Made by a program: the position numbers and the translations under genes. A stretch of DNA of 11,173 bases, from contig JAGREZ010000436.1 in assembly GCA_020446285.1 (NCBI GenBank), forward strand, positions 1 to 11,173, written 5' to 3'. The DNA is from Geminicoccaceae bacterium (GTDB taxonomy: Bacteria; Pseudomonadota; Alphaproteobacteria; Geminicoccales; Geminicoccaceae). This document shows positions 428 to 6,655 of the stretch, piece by piece (position 1 is the first letter of the stretch; each line of letters starts with the position of its first letter). Under the pieces are notes generated by a model, which worked only from the letters and a program-made list of their open reading frames with translations, was not told where the DNA came from and made no database searches.

Positions 428-513
428 GTTGGTCAAACTTGGGTATAAGTCCAACCCCTAAAAGTATGCCATTGACACATGAGTCATTGGCTTATACCAT
501 GTAGACATGACTC
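428..513 (+). promoter_or_regulatory. promoter and operator region of the toxin-antitoxin pair
   Basis: A perfect -35 box TTGACA lies at 472-477, and a -10-like TACCAT at 495-500 follows after 17 bases. The +1 would then fall at about 507, the A of the toxin ATG, so the transcript may be leaderless. Two inverted repeats overlap the promoter: GGTATAAG (442-449) with CTTATACC (491-498), and GAGTCAT (481-487) with ATGACTC (507-513). The second arm of the first pair covers most of the -10 box. This is the arrangement expected for autorepression by an XRE-type antitoxin. The boxes and repeats are seen; the operator role is inferred. Confidence 0.55.
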
Positions 514-851
514 CTCCCCTGATCACAATTGTCGAAACCAATGCCTGGTTGATCGCTTGTAGAGGCGTTGCAAGTGATCGGGAACGGGAAGAAATGGTGA
601 ACTTCATCGCAAGTTCACCCTTGTCGGGTGTGTCGATTGGTGGCGGTGTCCGCAAGGTTCGGATTGCCAGATCGGGGCAGGGGAAGAGTGGGGGCTATCG
701 CGTCGTGTTTCTCTTTGCTGATGAAGACGTTCCGGTGTTTCTGCTGACGCTCTTTGCCAAGAATGAAAAGAGCAACCTGACACAAGAAGAGCAGCGGACA
801 ATCATCGCTGCGGCGAAAGCCATGATCACGGACTACAGGAGACGAAAATGA
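507..851 (+). CDS. HigB2/RelE-type toxin
   Basis: The product is a 114-residue protein of the RelE/HigB2 toxin type. Members of this superfamily are mostly ribosome-dependent mRNA endonucleases that arrest translation when their antitoxin is lost. The family signature is visible: GGGVRKVRIARSGQGKSGG at about 45-63, a YRVVFLF strand at 64-70, then PVFLLTLFAKNEKSNLT at about 76-92 and a C-terminal helix. Length is normal and the frame is intact. The ATG at 507 has no ribosome binding site, and the promoter places the transcript start on it. The stop overlaps the antitoxin start by four bases (ATGA), so the two are translationally coupled with the toxin first, the usual HigBA order. Base composition is less GC-rich than the neighbours, which fits horizontal acquisition. 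Family assignment is confident; activity is inferred. Confidence 0.9.
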   Translation: MTPPLITIVETNAWLIACRGVASDREREEMVNFIASSPLSGVSIGGGVRKVRIARSGQGKSGGYRVVFLFADEDVPVFLLTLFAKNEKSNLTQEEQRTIIAAAKAMITDYRRRK

Positions 852-1147
852 GCAAGGCGTTCGACAAGATCATGGCCGGTCTGGATGATGCACGCGTCTA
901 TCTGAATGGCGATGAGTCGCAGAGTGTCACCCATCAAATTCAGGTCGAGGCGATTGATGTCAGTGCGATTCGGGAGACGACAGGCCTGTCCCAGGCACAG
1001 TTTGCAAGGAGTATCGGCGTGGCGAAAGGCACGCTCCTGAACTGGGAACACGGACGTCGCTCACCGCAAGGGCCGGCGAAGGTATTGCTGGCTCTCGTCG
1101 CCAAACGCCCATCCATCGTACAGGAGCTTCTGGCAGAGAACTCCTGA
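848..1147 (+). CDS. XRE-family antitoxin (HigA2-like)
   Basis: The product is a 99-residue partner of the upstream toxin. The helix-turn-helix covers about residues 38-75, with the Cro/C1-type core TGLSQAQFARSIGVAKGTLL followed by NWEHGRRSPQGPA. The N-terminal 35 residues probably contact the toxin. In this family the protein neutralises the toxin by binding it and represses its own operon through the DNA-binding domain. The ATG at 848 has a good ribosome binding site, AGGAG at 837-841, six bases upstream inside the toxin gene. It also overlaps the toxin stop codon. The likely operator is the inverted-repeat region before the toxin. The gene ends about 70 bases before the convergent barrel-protein gene. 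Confidence 0.9.
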   Translation: MSKAFDKIMAGLDDARVYLNGDESQSVTHQIQVEAIDVSAIRETTGLSQAQFARSIGVAKGTLLNWEHGRRSPQGPAKVLLALVAKRPSIVQELLAENS

Positions 1148-1216: not shown

Positions 1217-2737
1217 TCAATCGAGGGTGAAGCGGATCGGAACTGCCAGTCTTGCGGTAACGTCCGGCGCATCGTCGCCGAGGCCGACGCCGATGGTGAA
1301 ATCGACCAGCGTGCGGCGGGCCACTACGGCAGCGGCGCCGAGCGAGAGGATTCCGAACGTCCGGCTGGAGCCCGGAATGCCGTTCCCGTCGAATTCGGCC
1401 TTCTTTTCGAAACGGTGGGTATAGCCGATCTTGAGCGAGGTATGCGGGCTCGCCGCCAGAACCGCACCGACTGACACGCCGAGACGGTCGCCTTGCTGGA
1501 CATTGTTGTCCTCGAGACTGGTCTCGACCGAAACACCGCCGGTAAAGGCGAGGGGATCCTGCCGCTTGAGGAAACTCAGTGACGCGCCGAATTCGTTCCG
1601 GCCGCCGCCAAGACCGACGCTGTTGTCCTCGCGCTCGCCGGAAGCCGTGTCCCAGAAGAGCCGGCCGACGAAATCGGGGAGCCTGTCCTCGCCGCGATAG
1701 AGCGTCTTCGCCACGCCGATGCGCAGATCGCCCATGCCCGAGCCCTGTTCGTCATTCTCGGCCGCACCGGCATTGCCGACTTCGGTGACGATGCGCTCGT
1801 CGGTCCAGTGCCAGGGCAGTTCGAGCTCGATCTGGCTGTCGAAGGGCAGACCGGCACGGATCGCGGTCACAGCACTGACACTCTGGCGGCGCTGCCTGTT
1901 CGCGCCGACAAAGAGCGAGACATCATCGATATCGGTGATAAAAACGGGTGTGGCGTCGTCATTGAGCGCATAGGCGAGGGAAGGTTCGACCTCGATCGCG
2001 CCCGATGGAAGAAGAAGCGTTCCGATACCCGCAAGGGTGCGTTCGAGCGCCCGGTCGATGATCAGATCCTCGCGAACGCTGCCGCCGTCCTCCCGATCAC
2101 CGGTCGGCACCGGCAGACCGGGCCCGGCGCCGGGCGTCATGCCTTCGAGCGCCTCGATGCGGGCGAGCAGGCTCCGGATCATGAGATCCCGGCGATACCC
2201 TTCATCCTGCCCGTCATCAGGGCGCTCTTCTCCGGCTGTTCCGGCAGCGGCGGTGCGTTCGACCTGCGCACTCCCGTCATTCGCAGATTCGGGCGCAGAT
2301 TCGGGTACAGATTCGGGTACAGATTCGGACTCCGGCGGATCGAGGGGAAGCGCCACCCGCGCCGATGGCAGGATATCGATGCCGAGCTTGTCGGCATCGA
2401 GGCGAAGCCGGCGGAACCGCGCTCCGGGTGCAAGTTCCAGCTCCACGGTGCGTTCGTCGATGATGCGCAGGCCGCGCAACAGCTCTCCCGTTCCCCTTGC
2501 CCCGCCTTCGGCAAGGAATGTCTGCTCGTTCGCGAAGCGGATCCGGAGACGGTCATTCTCCGCCACCAGTTCGGCCGAAAGCGGTGCATCCGCCTCGAAC
2601 ACGATCCGCTCGAAACCGTCATGGATGCCCCGCCGGAATTCCGTCCCGGCAGCATCGACGGGATGAGCAGCGATACAGGCGAACAGGAACGGCAGGGCTG
2701 TCCGCCCGACCCGGCGGCGATGGAGCGTAGGTTTCAT
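1217..2737 (-). CDS. FapF-like outer-membrane barrel protein
   Basis: The product is 506 residues. A signal peptide covers about 1-29 (arginine-rich start, hydrophobic core, cut near VDA-A). Residues 32-125 form a beta-rich segment resembling AMIN domains (GFERIVFEAD, DRLRIRF). An acidic Pro-Glu-Ser linker lies at 134-151 and a short predicted coiled coil at about 181-199 (RSLLARIEALE). From about 228 to 506 comes a barrel of the phenol-degradation/MetA-like transporter type, with the entry motif ALERTLAGIGTLLLPSGAIE, a GMGDLRIGV strand and many alternating amphipathic strands. FapF of Pseudomonas likewise joins a periplasmic trimeric coiled coil to a C-terminal barrel and exports amyloid subunits. 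The chain ends in FTLD, not a terminal aromatic. The gene starts 19 bases after the peptidase stop. An export-pore role is inferred from architecture and gene order. Confidence 0.75.
   Translation of the reverse strand: MKPTLHRRRVGRTALPFLFACIAAHPVDAAGTEFRRGIHDGFERIVFEADAPLSAELVAENDRLRIRFANEQTFLAEGGARGTGELLRGLRIIDERTVELELAPGARFRRLRLDADKLGIDILPSARVALPLDPPESESVPESVPESAPESANDGSAQVERTAAAGTAGEERPDDGQDEGYRRDLMIRSLLARIEALEGMTPGAGPGLPVPTGDREDGGSVREDLIIDRALERTLAGIGTLLLPSGAIEVEPSLAYALNDDATPVFITDIDDVSLFVGANRQRRQSVSAVTAIRAGLPFDSQIELELPWHWTDERIVTEVGNAGAAENDEQGSGMGDLRIGVAKTLYRGEDRLPDFVGRLFWDTASGEREDNSVGLGGGRNEFGASLSFLKRQDPLAFTGGVSVETSLEDNNVQQGDRLGVSVGAVLAASPHTSLKIGYTHRFEKKAEFDGNGIPGSSRTFGILSLGAAAVVARRTLVDFTIGVGLGDDAPDVTARLAVPIRFTLD
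2285..2332. repeat. four tandem 12-bp units inside the barrel gene
   Basis: Four consecutive 12-base units of the form agattcgggtac start at 2285, 2297, 2309 and 2321. The two middle units are identical and the outer two differ at a few bases. On the minus strand they encode the tetrapeptide repeat VPES/APES in the linker between the AMIN-like domain and the coiled coil. Because 12 is divisible by three, slippage would change linker length without breaking the frame. Confidence 0.85.
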
Positions 2738-2756
2738 GAGACGTTTCCCGTTTTTT

Positions 2757-3488
2757 TCAGCCGGACATCATGAAGTCGGCGGGTCTGGCCCGAAGCCTGT
2801 CGGGCGGATCGAGGCCATCGCGGCGATCGACGGTGAAACCCACGCGACCGATCTCGTCATTGACCGGAATCCACAATCGCTCGAAGGTCGTCCGGCGCAT
2901 CGTGCGCACACCGAATGCCGGATCCGAGAGCAACACCTGGCCTTGCCAGACGCCGCGATAGACGACGAAATGGCTCTGCCCGTTTTCGAAGATGGGCAGG
3001 ATGAGCGGCGTCATTCCGGCAAGATCGGCGAATGCGAGGCTGCCGAAGCCGCCGGCCCGATAGCCGCGGGCGTTGGTGAAGCGGGCGAGATCGGCGAGCG
3101 AGAAGCCCTGACGGGCCTTCACCAGCTCCGGCGTCTCCAGATAGATGTCGCGGTCGATCAGCCCGCGCGTGATCTCGAGCTCGCTCACCGGATCGCCATG
3201 GTGATAATTCAGAAGCGTTGCCAGTGCGGCAGCACCGCAGCTGAGATCCCAGGCCTGCATCACCACACCGTCCCGGCGCATCTCGCGAAGGGAACGGACC
3301 GGCCCGTCAGGCATTCGATCCGCTGTCCACGTCCCGGCGCGCTGCCCGGACGGTCCCGCCGCACAGGCCTGCACGAGGCAGGCCGAGAGCATGAGAACCG
3401 TCCGGGCCCAGGCCTTGGACCGGGGCCGCCACCCGCCCTCACTCGAGGAGAGCGGGAGGCGCCGGGGCGGATGGCGGCGTCCGGTCAT
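2757..3488 (-). CDS. C39-type cysteine peptidase lipoprotein (FapD-like)
   Basis: The product is 243 residues. After a basic stretch of about 28 residues comes a short hydrophobic segment with the lipobox LSAC (34-37, lipidated Cys37; VQAC at 39-42 is an alternative), so a membrane-anchored periplasmic protein is expected. The mature part is a C39-like papain-fold peptidase. Its motif QAWDLSCGAAALATLL supplies oxyanion Gln78 and nucleophile Cys84. HFVVYRGV supplies His173 and LLSDPAFG supplies Asp189, so all catalytic residues are present. C39 domains of bacteriocin exporters cut double-glycine leaders; FapD is the stand-alone homologue in fap operons. The gene starts 20 bases after the preceding small gene and ends 19 bases before the barrel gene, so one transcript is likely. 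The start is preceded only by a weak CAGG. The catalytic fold is confident; the substrate is inferred from the neighbours. Confidence 0.85.
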   Translation of the reverse strand: MTGRRHPPRRLPLSSSEGGWRPRSKAWARTVLMLSACLVQACAAGPSGQRAGTWTADRMPDGPVRSLREMRRDGVVMQAWDLSCGAAALATLLNYHHGDPVSELEITRGLIDRDIYLETPELVKARQGFSLADLARFTNARGYRAGGFGSLAFADLAGMTPLILPIFENGQSHFVVYRGVWQGQVLLSDPAFGVRTMRRTTFERLWIPVNDEIGRVGFTVDRRDGLDPPDRLRARPADFMMSG

Positions 3489-3508
3489 GGCCTGTACGCT
3501 CCGCCGGA

Positions 3509-3865
3509 TCAGAAGCTGGAGGCGGATTCGACGATGCCGACGGACTGCGACAGGGCGCCGGCAATGGTGTTGGCGCCGAAGGTGGCGCTGGTGAGGGTAT
3601 TCGGTCCGAGCGCGGTGGCCGCGCCTTCCGACGTCGCCACATTGCCGTGGAGATAGACCTTCGACTTGATGTAGCTGTCGACCCAGTTGTGGATCGAATC
3701 GGACAGGTTCACATTCTTGCCGAAGTCGAGCGGCACACCCGGCATATGGTAGCCGGTGCCGGCGGTGATACCGTCCATCGCGGCATCGTCGAGTGAAAGC
3801 GGCTCGGCCGAAGCGGCACCTGCGAGAAGGCCGATGGCCGCGGCGGTGAACAGGGTCTTGCGCAT
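3509..3865 (-). CDS. small exported protein with MDGITAG leader motif (B)
   Basis: The product is 118 residues with a clear Sec signal peptide, MRKTLFTAAAIGLLAGAASA, cut after residue 20. The mature protein opens with EPLSLDDAAMDGITAG (21-36), nearly the same as in the other small gene of this operon. The rest is Ser/Ala/Gly/Asn-rich with no Cys and no obvious internal repeats, and ends in a phenylalanine. I chose ATG 3865 because AAGGAG at 3878-3873 sits seven bases upstream; the ATG at 3871 would leave only one base. The gene lies directly before the C39 peptidase. It is probably a substrate of that peptidase and of the barrel protein, and could be a fibre or surface subunit. No known family is recognised beyond the leader motif, and the amyloid role is an inference. 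Confidence 0.8.
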   Translation of the reverse strand: MRKTLFTAAAIGLLAGAASAEPLSLDDAAMDGITAGTGYHMPGVPLDFGKNVNLSDSIHNWVDSYIKSKVYLHGNVATSEGAATALGPNTLTSATFGANTIAGALSQSVGIVESASSF

Positions 3866-3892
3866 TTTCATACTCCTTGATGCGTCATTCCC

Positions 3893-3989
3893 GGGCAGGA
3901 CCATCCCTGCCCTTCTTCCAAGCGGGCGGACAGCACCGCCCGATCTGCCAGGAGGCCGGCAGTTCCGGACGACCCGCCACGCGCGGCGG
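3893..3989 (-). promoter_or_regulatory. cluster of stem-loops in the leader of small gene B
   Basis: The 162-base spacer between the two small genes can fold into consecutive hairpins. GGGCAGG (3893-3899) pairs with CCTGCCC (3906-3912) across a six-base loop. CGGGCGG (3923-3929) pairs with CCGCCCG (3936-3942), also across six bases. CTGCC (3945-3949) pairs with GGCAG (3958-3962), and CCGCC (3974-3978) with GGCGG (3985-3989). None is followed by a U-run on the minus strand, so simple intrinsic termination is not supported. RNA processing, mRNA stabilisation or unequal expression of the two small genes would fit. The first two stems are convincing; the last two are short. Confidence 0.45.
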
Positions 3990-4027
3990 CGGACCGTGCA
4001 ACTCGAATGGATTGGATGGCACCCGGA

Positions 4028-4477
4028 CTAGGGCGCCGATGCCAGGGCCGAGAGGCTCTCGAGGAGCTCCGGCGAGATCCGGTAGAGACCCACGGCAGTG
4101 CTCACCACATCGCTTCTGGCAGCACCGAGTGCCGAAGCGATACTGTCGGCCTGGGCATCACCCACGGCGATCGAGGTGGCATTGGCGGAAGCACCCGGAG
4201 CGCAAAGGAGACACAAGGCGATCGCATTCGCCACCGGCATGCTTATGCGGGTCGTGACCTGGTGCGTGCGCAGGATGGTCGGCGTGATGGAAAACTCCCG
4301 CGGCATGGTCAGGGGAACGCCGTTGGCACCGGCCGTGATCCCGTCCATGATTTCGGCAGAAAGCTCGAAGGGCTCGGCTTCGGCCTTGCCCGCGACGGGC
4401 GGCATCGCCATCGCCGCAAACAGGCATACGCCTGCCCCGAGCCATTTCCTGATCTTGACGTGACGTTGCATCCTCAC
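4028..4477 (-). CDS. small exported protein with MDGITAG leader motif and CxxC (A)
   Basis: The product is 149 residues and is the first gene of the four-gene minus-strand group. A Sec signal peptide (basic MRMQRHVKIRK, hydrophobic core from about 12, cut after KAEA near residue 34) is followed at once by EPFELSAEIMDGITAG (35-50), the leader shared with small gene B. The remainder is Ala/Ser-rich and contains a CLLC (CxxC) motif at 89-92. Fap fibre subunits of Pseudomonas also carry a CxxC, though near the C-terminus. The start GTG 4477 has GGGGAG at 4490-4485 seven bases upstream; ATG 4471 is possible but sits 13 bases from it. The likely fate is export and trimming by the C39-type peptidase. 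No family is recognised beyond the leader, and the function as subunit, nucleator or chaperone is unknown. Confidence 0.75.
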   Translation of the reverse strand: MRMQRHVKIRKWLGAGVCLFAAMAMPPVAGKAEAEPFELSAEIMDGITAGANGVPLTMPREFSITPTILRTHQVTTRISMPVANAIALCLLCAPGASANATSIAVGDAQADSIASALGAARSDVVSTAVGLYRISPELLESLSALASAP

Positions 4478-4699: not shown

Positions 4700-6313
4700 T
4701 CAGTTGCCTTCCGCTCTCCAGCGAAGCTGCCGGCTCATGATACTGTTGAGGAAGTCATTGCCCTCGGTCGCCTCGACCCGCCCGGACATGAGGGCGAAGA
4801 GCGATGTATGGAAGAGGGGTACGATGGTATTCTGTTCGAGGAGCCCGAGTTCGGCTTGCTGAAACAGCCGGTTGCGCTCGGCCGGATCCGTTTCCGCACT
4901 CGCGTGCCGCGCATACGGCACATAGAGAGCCGGATCCGGATAGCCGCAGTGAACGGGCTTGAGCACCTCGCAAGACTGGATGAAGTCACGCGGCGAGAGA
5001 TAGCCGAGGATCCACCGGCGCCGCGTCACCTCGTAGGTTCCCTGCTCCTGGAAACTGTTGAGATCATGCATCGAGGCCATGGGCTCGGCGAAATCGAGAT
5101 CGACGAAGATCTGCGACCAGTCGCGTGCCACGCTCAGCGCGACCTGAACATGTGTCTCGTCATCGTCGTTGGAGAGAACCAGATGCAGGCGCCTTTGCTG
5201 CGAATACCCGGCCTCGTTCATCAACCGTTTCGCCTCGGCGAGTGCCTGGGAATAGGGGGGCGGACTGAAGCCCGGTACATAGCCGCCATACCCCGGACGG
5301 ATGACGCCATAAGCGGGTGCTGCATTGCCGTCGAGAACCTCGTCGACGAGGCGTTCCCGGTCCACTGCCAGTCGCAGCGCGTGACGGACGCGAGGGTCGG
5401 TGAGGCCGGGTGCCCGGCTGTTGAGGGCGTAGAAACTGAATTCCGGATCCCGGGGTTCGACATGATAGCCGGTGTTCTGCATGAGCCAGTGAATCTGCCG
5501 CAGCGACACGCTCATCACCACATCCGCCTTGCCGTCGAACAGGCTTCGCGACGCCTCCGCCCATGTCGAGAACAGATGCGTCACCTTGCCGATGGCGGGC
5601 GGCCCGTCCTTGTAGAAGGGATTGGCGACCAGATTGAGTTCGTTGCCCTTGCTGGATTCGATCCGATACGGCCCGTTCGACGGTCGCCGCTCCCAGTCCA
5701 CCCAATGCGCTCGCGTCCGTGGCGCCGCATGTTCGGGCAACGGCGAAAAATAGCCGAACTTCAGTTCCTCGAGTGCAAGGGCATAGGGTTCGACCAGTTC
5801 GATACGCAGGCGGTAATCGTCGAGAGCGCGGACACCGAGAGGTTCATCGGAATCCAGCGCCCAGCCCCTGATGGTCTGGGCGAATGCGTGAAAGGTGTGC
5901 GGTGCGAATTCCGGATCGCGCTGCCGCGACCAGGCGAAGACGAAATCCCGTGCGGTGACCGCTTCGCCATCCGACCAGCGCCCGCCCTCGTCGAGCTGGA
6001 ACTCGTAGACACTGCCGCCCTCGAGAATCTCCCAGGATCGCGCTGCACCCGGCACGATCGAGCCGTCGGCATCGAGCAGGACGAGCTGGTCGAACATGTC
6101 GCGAAAGACCGAGCCGATCTCGGAGGTCAGCGTGTTCACCGGATCGAGATCGATATCTCTGGCGAACCGGGTCACATCGCCGACGACGAGATGGCGCACG
6201 AGCCTTCCTTCCTCCGCTCCGGCCGCTGCACCGCTCGGACAGAGGCTGGCGAGAAGCATGGCGGAGCATGGTGCGCAAGGCAGTAAAAGACGAAGGAAAC
6301 GCCGTTGCGCCAT
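4700..6313 (-). CDS. OppA-like ABC transporter solute-binding protein
   Basis: The product is 537 residues, the usual length for family 5 (SBP_bac_5) periplasmic binding proteins, which deliver oligopeptides or similar ligands to an ABC permease. A long hydrophobic signal peptide (LRLLLPCAPCSAMLLASLC) ends near AAAGA. Family landmarks follow in order: a MFDQLVLLDADGSIVPGAA block, SWEI with WSDGEAVTARDFVFAW, YFSPLPEHAAP, NGPYRI, the ALRLAVDRERLVDEVL helix and the C-terminal NTIVPLFHTSLFALMSGRV. These match the OppA branch best. I took ATG 6313 because the frame upstream to 6478 is AT-richer and not signal-like; no strong ribosome binding site precedes either start. No permease or ATPase gene is nearby, so it is an orphan here. 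Its ligand cannot be read from sequence, and it need not belong to the small-protein operon. Confidence 0.88.
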   Translation of the reverse strand: MAQRRFLRLLLPCAPCSAMLLASLCPSGAAAGAEEGRLVRHLVVGDVTRFARDIDLDPVNTLTSEIGSVFRDMFDQLVLLDADGSIVPGAARSWEILEGGSVYEFQLDEGGRWSDGEAVTARDFVFAWSRQRDPEFAPHTFHAFAQTIRGWALDSDEPLGVRALDDYRLRIELVEPYALALEELKFGYFSPLPEHAAPRTRAHWVDWERRPSNGPYRIESSKGNELNLVANPFYKDGPPAIGKVTHLFSTWAEASRSLFDGKADVVMSVSLRQIHWLMQNTGYHVEPRDPEFSFYALNSRAPGLTDPRVRHALRLAVDRERLVDEVLDGNAAPAYGVIRPGYGGYVPGFSPPPYSQALAEAKRLMNEAGYSQQRRLHLVLSNDDDETHVQVALSVARDWSQIFVDLDFAEPMASMHDLNSFQEQGTYEVTRRRWILGYLSPRDFIQSCEVLKPVHCGYPDPALYVPYARHASAETDPAERNRLFQQAELGLLEQNTIVPLFHTSLFALMSGRVEATEGNDFLNSIMSRQLRWRAEGN

Positions 6314-6655
6314 GACGAGCCGGTTCCAGCCGCGATCCGCAATGGCCCGGACGACATCAGGCAGGCGGGTGCCGGTGCAGCACTCAAGAATACGAATTAA
6401 TTCCTTGACACACTGCGTGTTCGCGTTGCAAATGACAAGATGTCGTTTGCTCAATGAAAAAAACAGATACGTTTCCATGACGCGTTTCGGTTTCGGGCCG
6501 ACTTTCTTTGAAAGTTCTTTCGGTTCTCAACGTGAGATTATTCAAAATCTGAGAAAAACTCAACTTGCATGAAAAGACACTTCCGTCGGTGGTGTTTTTT
6601 TGCTGAAATCGAAAACAGAAAAACCTCTCCAACCTCAATGTCCGGAACAGGAAAC
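6314..6655. other. A/T-richer divergent spacer between OppA-like and DUF883 genes
   Basis: This 342-base spacer separates two divergent genes and should hold both promoters. It contains a TTGACA at 6405-6410 on the plus strand without a good -10 at the right distance. A ten-base palindrome GAATTAATTC lies at 6394-6403, inside a wider imperfect repeat flanked by TCAAG (6384-6388) and CTTGA (6404-6408). Interlocking repeats ACTTTC-TTT-GAAAGT (6501-6515) and TCTCA-ACG-TGAGA (6525-6537) are also present. None can be assigned to a named regulator. I found no convincing gene or RNA in it. Confidence 0.4.

What the first reader, a model, noticed from the sequence alone, without database searches (positions are those of the whole stretch)
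1217..4477. Reduced Fap-like secretion/amyloid locus: two small exported proteins, C39-type lipoprotein peptidase, coiled-coil barrel
Seen: four minus-strand genes, the last three closely spaced, with two signal-peptide-bearing small proteins, a complete C39-type peptidase with a lipobox, and an outer-membrane barrel with an N-terminal coiled coil. Known: Pseudomonas fap operons have the order small subunits, FapD (C39 peptidase), FapE, FapF (coiled coil plus barrel). Inference: this is a distant or minimal version, lacking FapE and the repeat-bearing fibre subunits, that exports two short unrelated substrates. It may be an undescribed family of surface fibre or matrix systems.
Basis: partly seen in the sequence, partly recalled or inferred. 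Interest (0 to 1): 0.78.

Follow-up and report, generated by a model that had tools for sequence, protein, structure and literature searches.

The report
Fap-like exporter with second leader peptide
Four neighbouring genes in a bacterium appear to form a protein exporter related to the Pseudomonas amyloid exporter, in which small cargo proteins carry a second address tag that a dedicated protease probably cuts off between the two membranes; this gives a concrete, testable answer to what that kind of protease cuts.

Summary

Straight after the signal peptide, both small proteins carry L-x4-M-D-x-I-T-A-G: the canonical double-glycine leader register (-12, -7, -4, -2/-1). Across 80 related loci, 115 Sec-type ORFs within 3 kb of the peptidase carry a strict form, against a mean of 0.34 for scrambled motifs. 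Conservation stops at the predicted cut (leader identity 55%, cargo 9%). Leader type follows peptidase clade. FapE, encoded beside FapD, carries the same register (LKDQELAQLRGK), though Rouse 2017 reported no canonical C39 sequence in Fap proteins.

Best reading: Sec export, periplasmic removal of a second leader, release through a FapF-type pore. Cleavage, export and fibre formation are inferred. New variant of a known kind.

The parts
4028..4471 (-). S2, exported small protein (147 aa): Sec signal peptide, leader, 99-residue cargo with a CLLC motif
   Evidence: 3 homologues listed among 5.8 billion proteins, one of them 99% identical, one with a locus tag next to that of an S1 homologue
4328..4363 (-). 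S2 leader box LSAEIMDGITAG (-12 to -1); predicted cut after residue 48
   Evidence: register tests; consensus from PMC6959990 passages
3509..3865 (-). S1, exported small protein (118 aa): Sec signal peptide, leader, 82-residue cargo
   Evidence: 4 homologues listed, one of them 97% identical
3758..3793 (-). S1 leader box LDDAAMDGITAG (-12 to -1); predicted cut after residue 36
   Evidence: L at -12 and ITAG invariant in 5 of 5 sequences, window included, but -7 is Ala in P0123
2757..3488 (-). periplasmic C39 peptidase, FilB/FapD-like; Cys84, His173, Asp189
1217..2737 (-). outer-membrane FapF-type barrel protein, 506 aa
2369..2647 (-). beta domain of the barrel protein (residues 31-123), read as AMIN-like
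   Evidence: model; AMIN-like PF24837 in 22 and AMIN PF11741 in 4 of 65 aligned sequences at E up to 0.1, not called in the window protein
2141..2215 (-). helix before the plug (residues 175-199), place of the FapF coiled coil
   Evidence: moderate confidence
1226..2074 (-). plug helices and 12-stranded barrel (residues 222-504)
   Evidence: residues 227-503 align with FapF 88-406

Best explanation
This is a two-step export system. (1) S1 and S2 cross the inner membrane by Sec and lose the signal peptide, probably at A|EP. (2) In the periplasm the exposed N-terminus, EP-x-x-L-x4-M-D-x-I-T-A-G, docks on the C39 peptidase as a double-glycine leader does (hydrophobic -12/-7 knot, -4 specificity position), and the peptidase cuts after the final Gly. 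(3) The freed cargo leaves through the plugged FapF-type 12-strand pore encoded next door, whose AMIN-like domain may hold it to the cell wall. (4) Outside, the Ala/Ser/Gly/Thr-rich cargo probably assembles into surface material. Sequence, structure models and comparative genomics support the parts and the leader-peptidase pairing; the cleavage, the export and step 4 are inferred.
Against: No cleavage shown. One S1 homologue (P0123, 61% identical) has Ala at -7. Position -1 is Lys/Arg in FapE that passes NCBIfam's cut-off and Gln in FilA-like proteins, and -2/-1 is AG here, not GG. In Pseudomonas UK4, peptides were seen throughout FapA-D (PMC5557850), although FapA has a similar box, and in the Fap loci that I read FapB/FapC show none, so the leader is not a general export ticket in Fap. 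At the PCAT1 Ile59 position (my count on the alignment) most relatives have Lys and the window Ala. Window residues at -8 (Ala, Ile) are off the Gln/Glu consensus. Loci were retrieved by peptidase likeness, so rows are related; 10 of 48 window-like loci lack the strict motif within 4 kb. Sampling was uneven: one site per negative genome, up to several per positive one, and most first sites of positive genomes were unrelated too. The window's own place inside the TAG clade is weakly supported and on a long branch.
Confidence: 0.7

Rival explanations
1. The leader only docks: the C39 protein binds the TAG segment as a chaperone and hands cargo to the pore without cutting it, or its real substrate is the barrel linker.
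For: Non-cleaving C39-like domains exist in type 1 systems, and FapF cleavage has been proposed (PMC5557850 passages). The GG/AG rule is relaxed to GK/GR/GQ in some clades.
Against: Catalytic Cys and His invariant in 40 of 40 aligned sequences, window included; FapD C38A abolishes FapC secretion; the sharp conservation edge at -1/+1 is what a cut would leave.
Confidence: 0.15
2. The cargos are bacteriocin-like or signalling peptides rather than structural ones; the locus is a weapon or signal exporter.
For: Double-glycine leaders are typical of bacteriocins; 1-6 strict-motif proteins per locus with diverse cargo, 28 clusters at E<1e-3 among 112.
Against: Ala/Ser/Gly/Thr-rich, mostly Cys-free cargo (85 of 112), median 76 residues over 126 proteins; none of the seven window proteins scanned with Pfam is an ABC exporter; the pore is of the amyloid-exporter type. 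I did not search for immunity genes.
Confidence: 0.15
3. The barrel is a hydrophobic-compound uptake channel (Phenol_MetA_deg/COG4313) and the other genes are only neighbours.
Against: FapF ranks first with the plug region included; barrel-region hits in 15 of 15 C39-bearing family genomes and none of the 16 others of the family; a barrel hit somewhere in 77 of 80 wider loci.
Confidence: 0.04

Closest known systems
Fap (functional amyloid of Pseudomonas, FapABCDEF)
   Same: periplasmic C39 peptidase next to a plugged 12-strand FapF pore; Sec-exported substrates; FapE has the same -12/-7/-4 register after its signal peptide
   Different: no FapA/B/C/E family hit in S1/S2; AG instead of GK/GR; extra AMIN-like domain on the barrel protein; peptidase in another clade
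Fil (FilABCDEF, 'putative pilus system' of Acinetobacter)
   Same: best NCBIfam hits of the window are FilB 2.4e-26 and FilC 9.9e-6; FilA-like proteins have a leader-like box ending in TGQ
   Different: far under NCBIfam cut-offs (FilB 92.7 of 475 bits); S1/S2 hit no FilA family and none of the nine window proteins scanned hit a FilE or FilF family
Peptidase-containing ABC exporters of double-glycine leader peptides (PCAT1, ComA, LahT)
   Same: C39 fold and leader register L-12, L-7, hydrophobic -4, small -2/-1
   Different: here the inner-membrane step looks like Sec, the peptidase is a separate exported protein, and no ABC transporter is fused to it

Membership tests
Fap system | FapF-type pore: 12-strand barrel with helical plug | tested here: met
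Fap system | FapF equivalog by sequence | tested here: not met
   17.5 bits against a cut-off of 700
Fap system | N-terminal trimeric coiled coil on the pore | tested here: inconclusive
   one 25-residue helix at 175-199 behind a beta domain; trimer not testable
Fap system | FapD equivalog | tested here: not met
   69.3 bits against a cut-off of 330
Fap system | FapA, FapB/FapC with amyloid repeats, FapE | tested here: not met
   S1 and S2 match no NCBIfam family; hhalign of the S1 family against four FapC-type proteins, probability 20%
Fap system | extracellular amyloid fibre | not testable with these tools
   needs dye binding and microscopy
Fil system | FilB and FilC over curated cut-offs | tested here: not met
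   FilB 92.7 of 475 bits, FilC 25.1 of 630
C39 double-glycine leader peptidases | C39 domain with Cys, His, Asp | tested here: met
C39 double-glycine leader peptidases | substrate leader with hydrophobic -12, -7, -4 and small -2/-1 | tested here: met
   both window proteins; exhaustive register test on relatives; one S1 homologue deviates at -7
C39 double-glycine leader peptidases | cleavage after -1 | not testable with these tools
   needs N-terminal sequencing
Curli | curlin repeats in cargo | tested here: inconclusive
   no curlin hit in S1/S2 or in 10 relatives' cargo proteins against Pfam; 10 of the 112 were tried

The most novel reading that the evidence does not exclude
FapD/FilB-type peptidases as a whole are periplasmic double-glycine leader proteases. 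Sec delivers precursors with a second leader; the peptidase clade and leader type (RG[GKR], TGQ or TAG) co-evolve; and the TAG branch has become a general outer-membrane export route for many unrelated small cargos, some encoded away from the exporter. The Fap amyloid system would be one special case of this route.
Probability: 0.55. Interest if true: 0.82.

Novelty: new variant of a known kind. Interest (0 to 1): 0.66.

Why it matters
FapD is needed for Fap secretion, but its target was left open in 2017 (FapE was favoured) and in a 2025 review FapD is still only 'thought to' process FapE and FapF. A shared leader register gives an exact predicted cut site for FapE and for dozens of unnamed small proteins, and a sequence tag with which to find the cargo of such exporters in raw genomes. 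It would also show a leader-peptide logic best known from cytoplasmic ABC exporters working in the periplasm after Sec.

Tried and rejected
A single-sequence scan of genome contigs found no relatives; the alignment did. Profile comparison of S1 with FapC-type proteins gave 20% probability, so no homology is claimed. No curlin or other convincing Pfam hit in ten relatives' cargo proteins. No convincing promoter or terminator for the operon (1 promoter-like site, on the other strand, 0.4 expected; 2 terminator-like sites, 2.1 expected) and no Rfam match in the window. A DNA pattern for the leader alone is a weak genome-wide detector: most of the sites read lie in unrelated proteins (pattern hits). 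My loose GG/GR/GK rule produces some false labels (for example L121, L123, L133, L221 and L226; the L219 hit lies off the true box). The rule allows the box up to 150 residues into the protein and leaves -4 free, and that exact rule has no scrambled control; controls of the related, tighter rule are (61 ORFs against a permuted mean of 8.3, max 48 of 400). With GG fixed, 9 of 400 random placements equalled the observed count; in the exhaustive list of 45 placements (-12,-7) stands alone at 61, then 37, 34 and 12, so those 9 must be repeats of the original placement. The beta domain of the barrel protein was barely tested in the fold search, whose rows span residues 234-505, so its fold match is open. 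Papers: PMC5557850, PMC6173800, PMC6959990, PMC5135000, PMC7764130 and PMC12822426 were seen as passages; all others only as search listings. That I found no print of the leader reading rests (open-licence library only, several listings capped, supplements of PMC5557850 not seen).

Full report
WHAT IS THERE. The window is a whole contig of a draft genome (4.2 Mb in 619 contigs, 87% complete). On the minus strand lie S2 (4028-4471), S1 (3509-3865), a C39 peptidase (2757-3488) and a barrel protein (1217-2737), with gaps of 162, 20 and 19 nt. The 162-nt gap holds a perfect 7-bp inverted repeat (3923-3942).

THE LEADER. After the signal peptide, S1 reads EPLS-LDDAAMDGITAG and S2 EPFE-LSAEIMDGITAG. 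The PCAT consensus is L(-12)xxxE(-8)L(-7)xxxxG(-2)G(-1), with -12/-7 forming a hydrophobic knot and -4 likely giving specificity (PMC6959990 passages). Both proteins fit at -12, -7, -4, -2 (as Ala) and -1, not at -8. Of the S1 homologues one (P0123) has Ala at -7.

THE TEST. Among 714 Sec-like ORFs, the a priori motif occurs in 152 ORFs (60 loci) within 3 kb, against a permuted mean of 35.8 (max 73 of 300). The strict form occurs in 115 ORFs (41 loci) near and 11 (7 loci) far, in 425 and 548 kb of DNA, against a permuted mean of 0.34 (max 6). Of 48 loci that I set apart as window-like by peptidase match, 38 have it within 4 kb; five of the ten misses have under 900 bp of DNA upstream of the peptidase. 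Of 120 placements of three hydrophobic residues before [AG]G, (-12,-7,-4) scores 111 of 229 ORFs, the next 12, the median 3. In 110 non-redundant leaders from 42 loci, conservation runs from E/P at -16/-15 through Q/E at -8 (86%, not part of the search rule) to G at -1, then falls to background at +1. Mean identity between loci is 55% in the leader and 9% in the first 12 cargo residues (window included), and 20% in the end of the signal peptide (window left out). The rule itself fixes part of the leader, so the edge and the unselected columns (-15, -8) carry more weight than the percentage.

CO-EVOLUTION. A tree of 120 C39 domains (two of 122 loci left out for short domains) puts all 49 TAG-labelled loci in one 61-row clade (99/86), none in the 54-row Fap clade; four TGQ loci form their own clade; TAG needs 10 changes against 38.2 in shuffles (0 of 500 as low). 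The root is a midpoint, the window sits on a long branch with weak support inside its clade (smallest starred set 55 rows), and shuffles ignore kinship. In the Fap clade, 49 of 54 loci have a hydrophobic-x4-hydrophobic-x3-R-G-[GKR] box in the gene just upstream (23 of 50 with an ORF there) or downstream (40 of 49); one of these hits (L219) is off the box VPEHELAEMRGR that I would pick by eye. FapE of L212 and L217 passes NCBIfam's cut-off (348 and 345.5 bits, cut-off 250), as does FapD of L212 (401 bits, cut-off 330); their boxes are LKDQELAQLRGK and LKDSEMAELRGR.

GENOME LEVEL. The peptidase is in 15 of 31 sampled genomes of the family, own included, and in 0 of 29 outside it. Barrel-region hits fall in the same 15, plus one genome outside the family (G057); four other hits cover only the N-terminal domain or linker. 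Six credible Sec-leader proteins lie on contigs without a peptidase hit, in G012, G020 (three), G029 and G030; contigs are short, so 'remote' is not proven. In 15 of the 16 peptidase-negative family genomes one motif site each was read: none is credible, though the script flagged one that looks like a P-loop kinase. In the own genome, of four pattern sites only the two in the window are of this kind. S1 and S2 have 4 and 3 listed homologues in 5.8 billion proteins, one of each near-identical. Homologues of S1, S2 and the barrel share longest-contig lengths of 69,689 and 49,002 bases, and the S1 and S2 homologues on the first bear the neighbouring tags R3C97_09550 and R3C97_09555.

HOW IT MOST LIKELY WORKS. 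Sec export, periplasmic leader binding and cutting by the C39 enzyme, and release through the FapF-type pore. Composition of 112 cargos (A 15, S 11, G 11, T 10%; 85 Cys-free) suits a structural surface material, but nothing here shows it. In UK4, FapA-D showed no processing and FapE lost its N-terminus, with no peptide in about the first 70 residues; my predicted cut in the L212 FapE is after residue 40, so the two agree only in part.

AGAINST WHAT IS KNOWN. Rouse 2017 stated that Fap proteins lack canonical C39 sequences and that the target of FapD is unclear, while pointing to GG and GA motifs in FapE. A 2018 review noted co-located fapD and fapF homologues in five additional phyla. A 2025 review says FapD is thought to process FapE and FapF. 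So processing of FapE by FapD is an existing proposal; the common register across Fap, Fil and TAG clades, and the TAG cargo arrays, I did not find in the searches listed under Tried and rejected.

Noticed in passing
window 507-1147 (+): RelE-family toxin gene and overlapping HTH (NadS/MqsA-like) antitoxin next to the barrel gene: an ordinary toxin-antitoxin pair.
   Followed up: partly
window 4700-6478 (-): Family 5 extracellular solute-binding protein (OppA-like) with some 110-140 residues before the matched region, upstream of S2 on the same strand; the start codon may be called too early.
   Followed up: no
window 3923-3942: Perfect 7-bp inverted repeat with a 6-nt loop between S2 and S1, no T-run; may tune expression of S1 and the exporter against S2.
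   Followed up: no
window 4031-4471 (S2): S2 and two homologues (P0126, P0127) keep a CxLC motif, and several other TAG cargos have CC pairs; FapC is said to have a CxxC (PMC5135000 passage).
   Followed up: no
L220 (G193): Tandem duplication of a Fap/Fil-type cassette: C39 neighbours with the same N-termini and equal C39 scores, about 2.9 kb apart.
   Followed up: no
L104: C39-barrel-TAG locus on a contig filed as Candidatus Bathyarchaeota; an outer-membrane pore in an archaeon suggests a misbinned contig.
   Followed up: no
L212, L219, L224, L228: FapA-like proteins have a leader-like box far inside the mature protein (e.g. LSDSDFAGVTSG, LGDADFARVSGG), although UK4 FapA was reported unprocessed.
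   Followed up: partly
L035, L124: A second C39 paralogue type in one genome of the window's family (G020) has cargos ending in AGG/TGG (LDEAALGDVAGG), between the TAG and GG leader forms.
   Followed up: no
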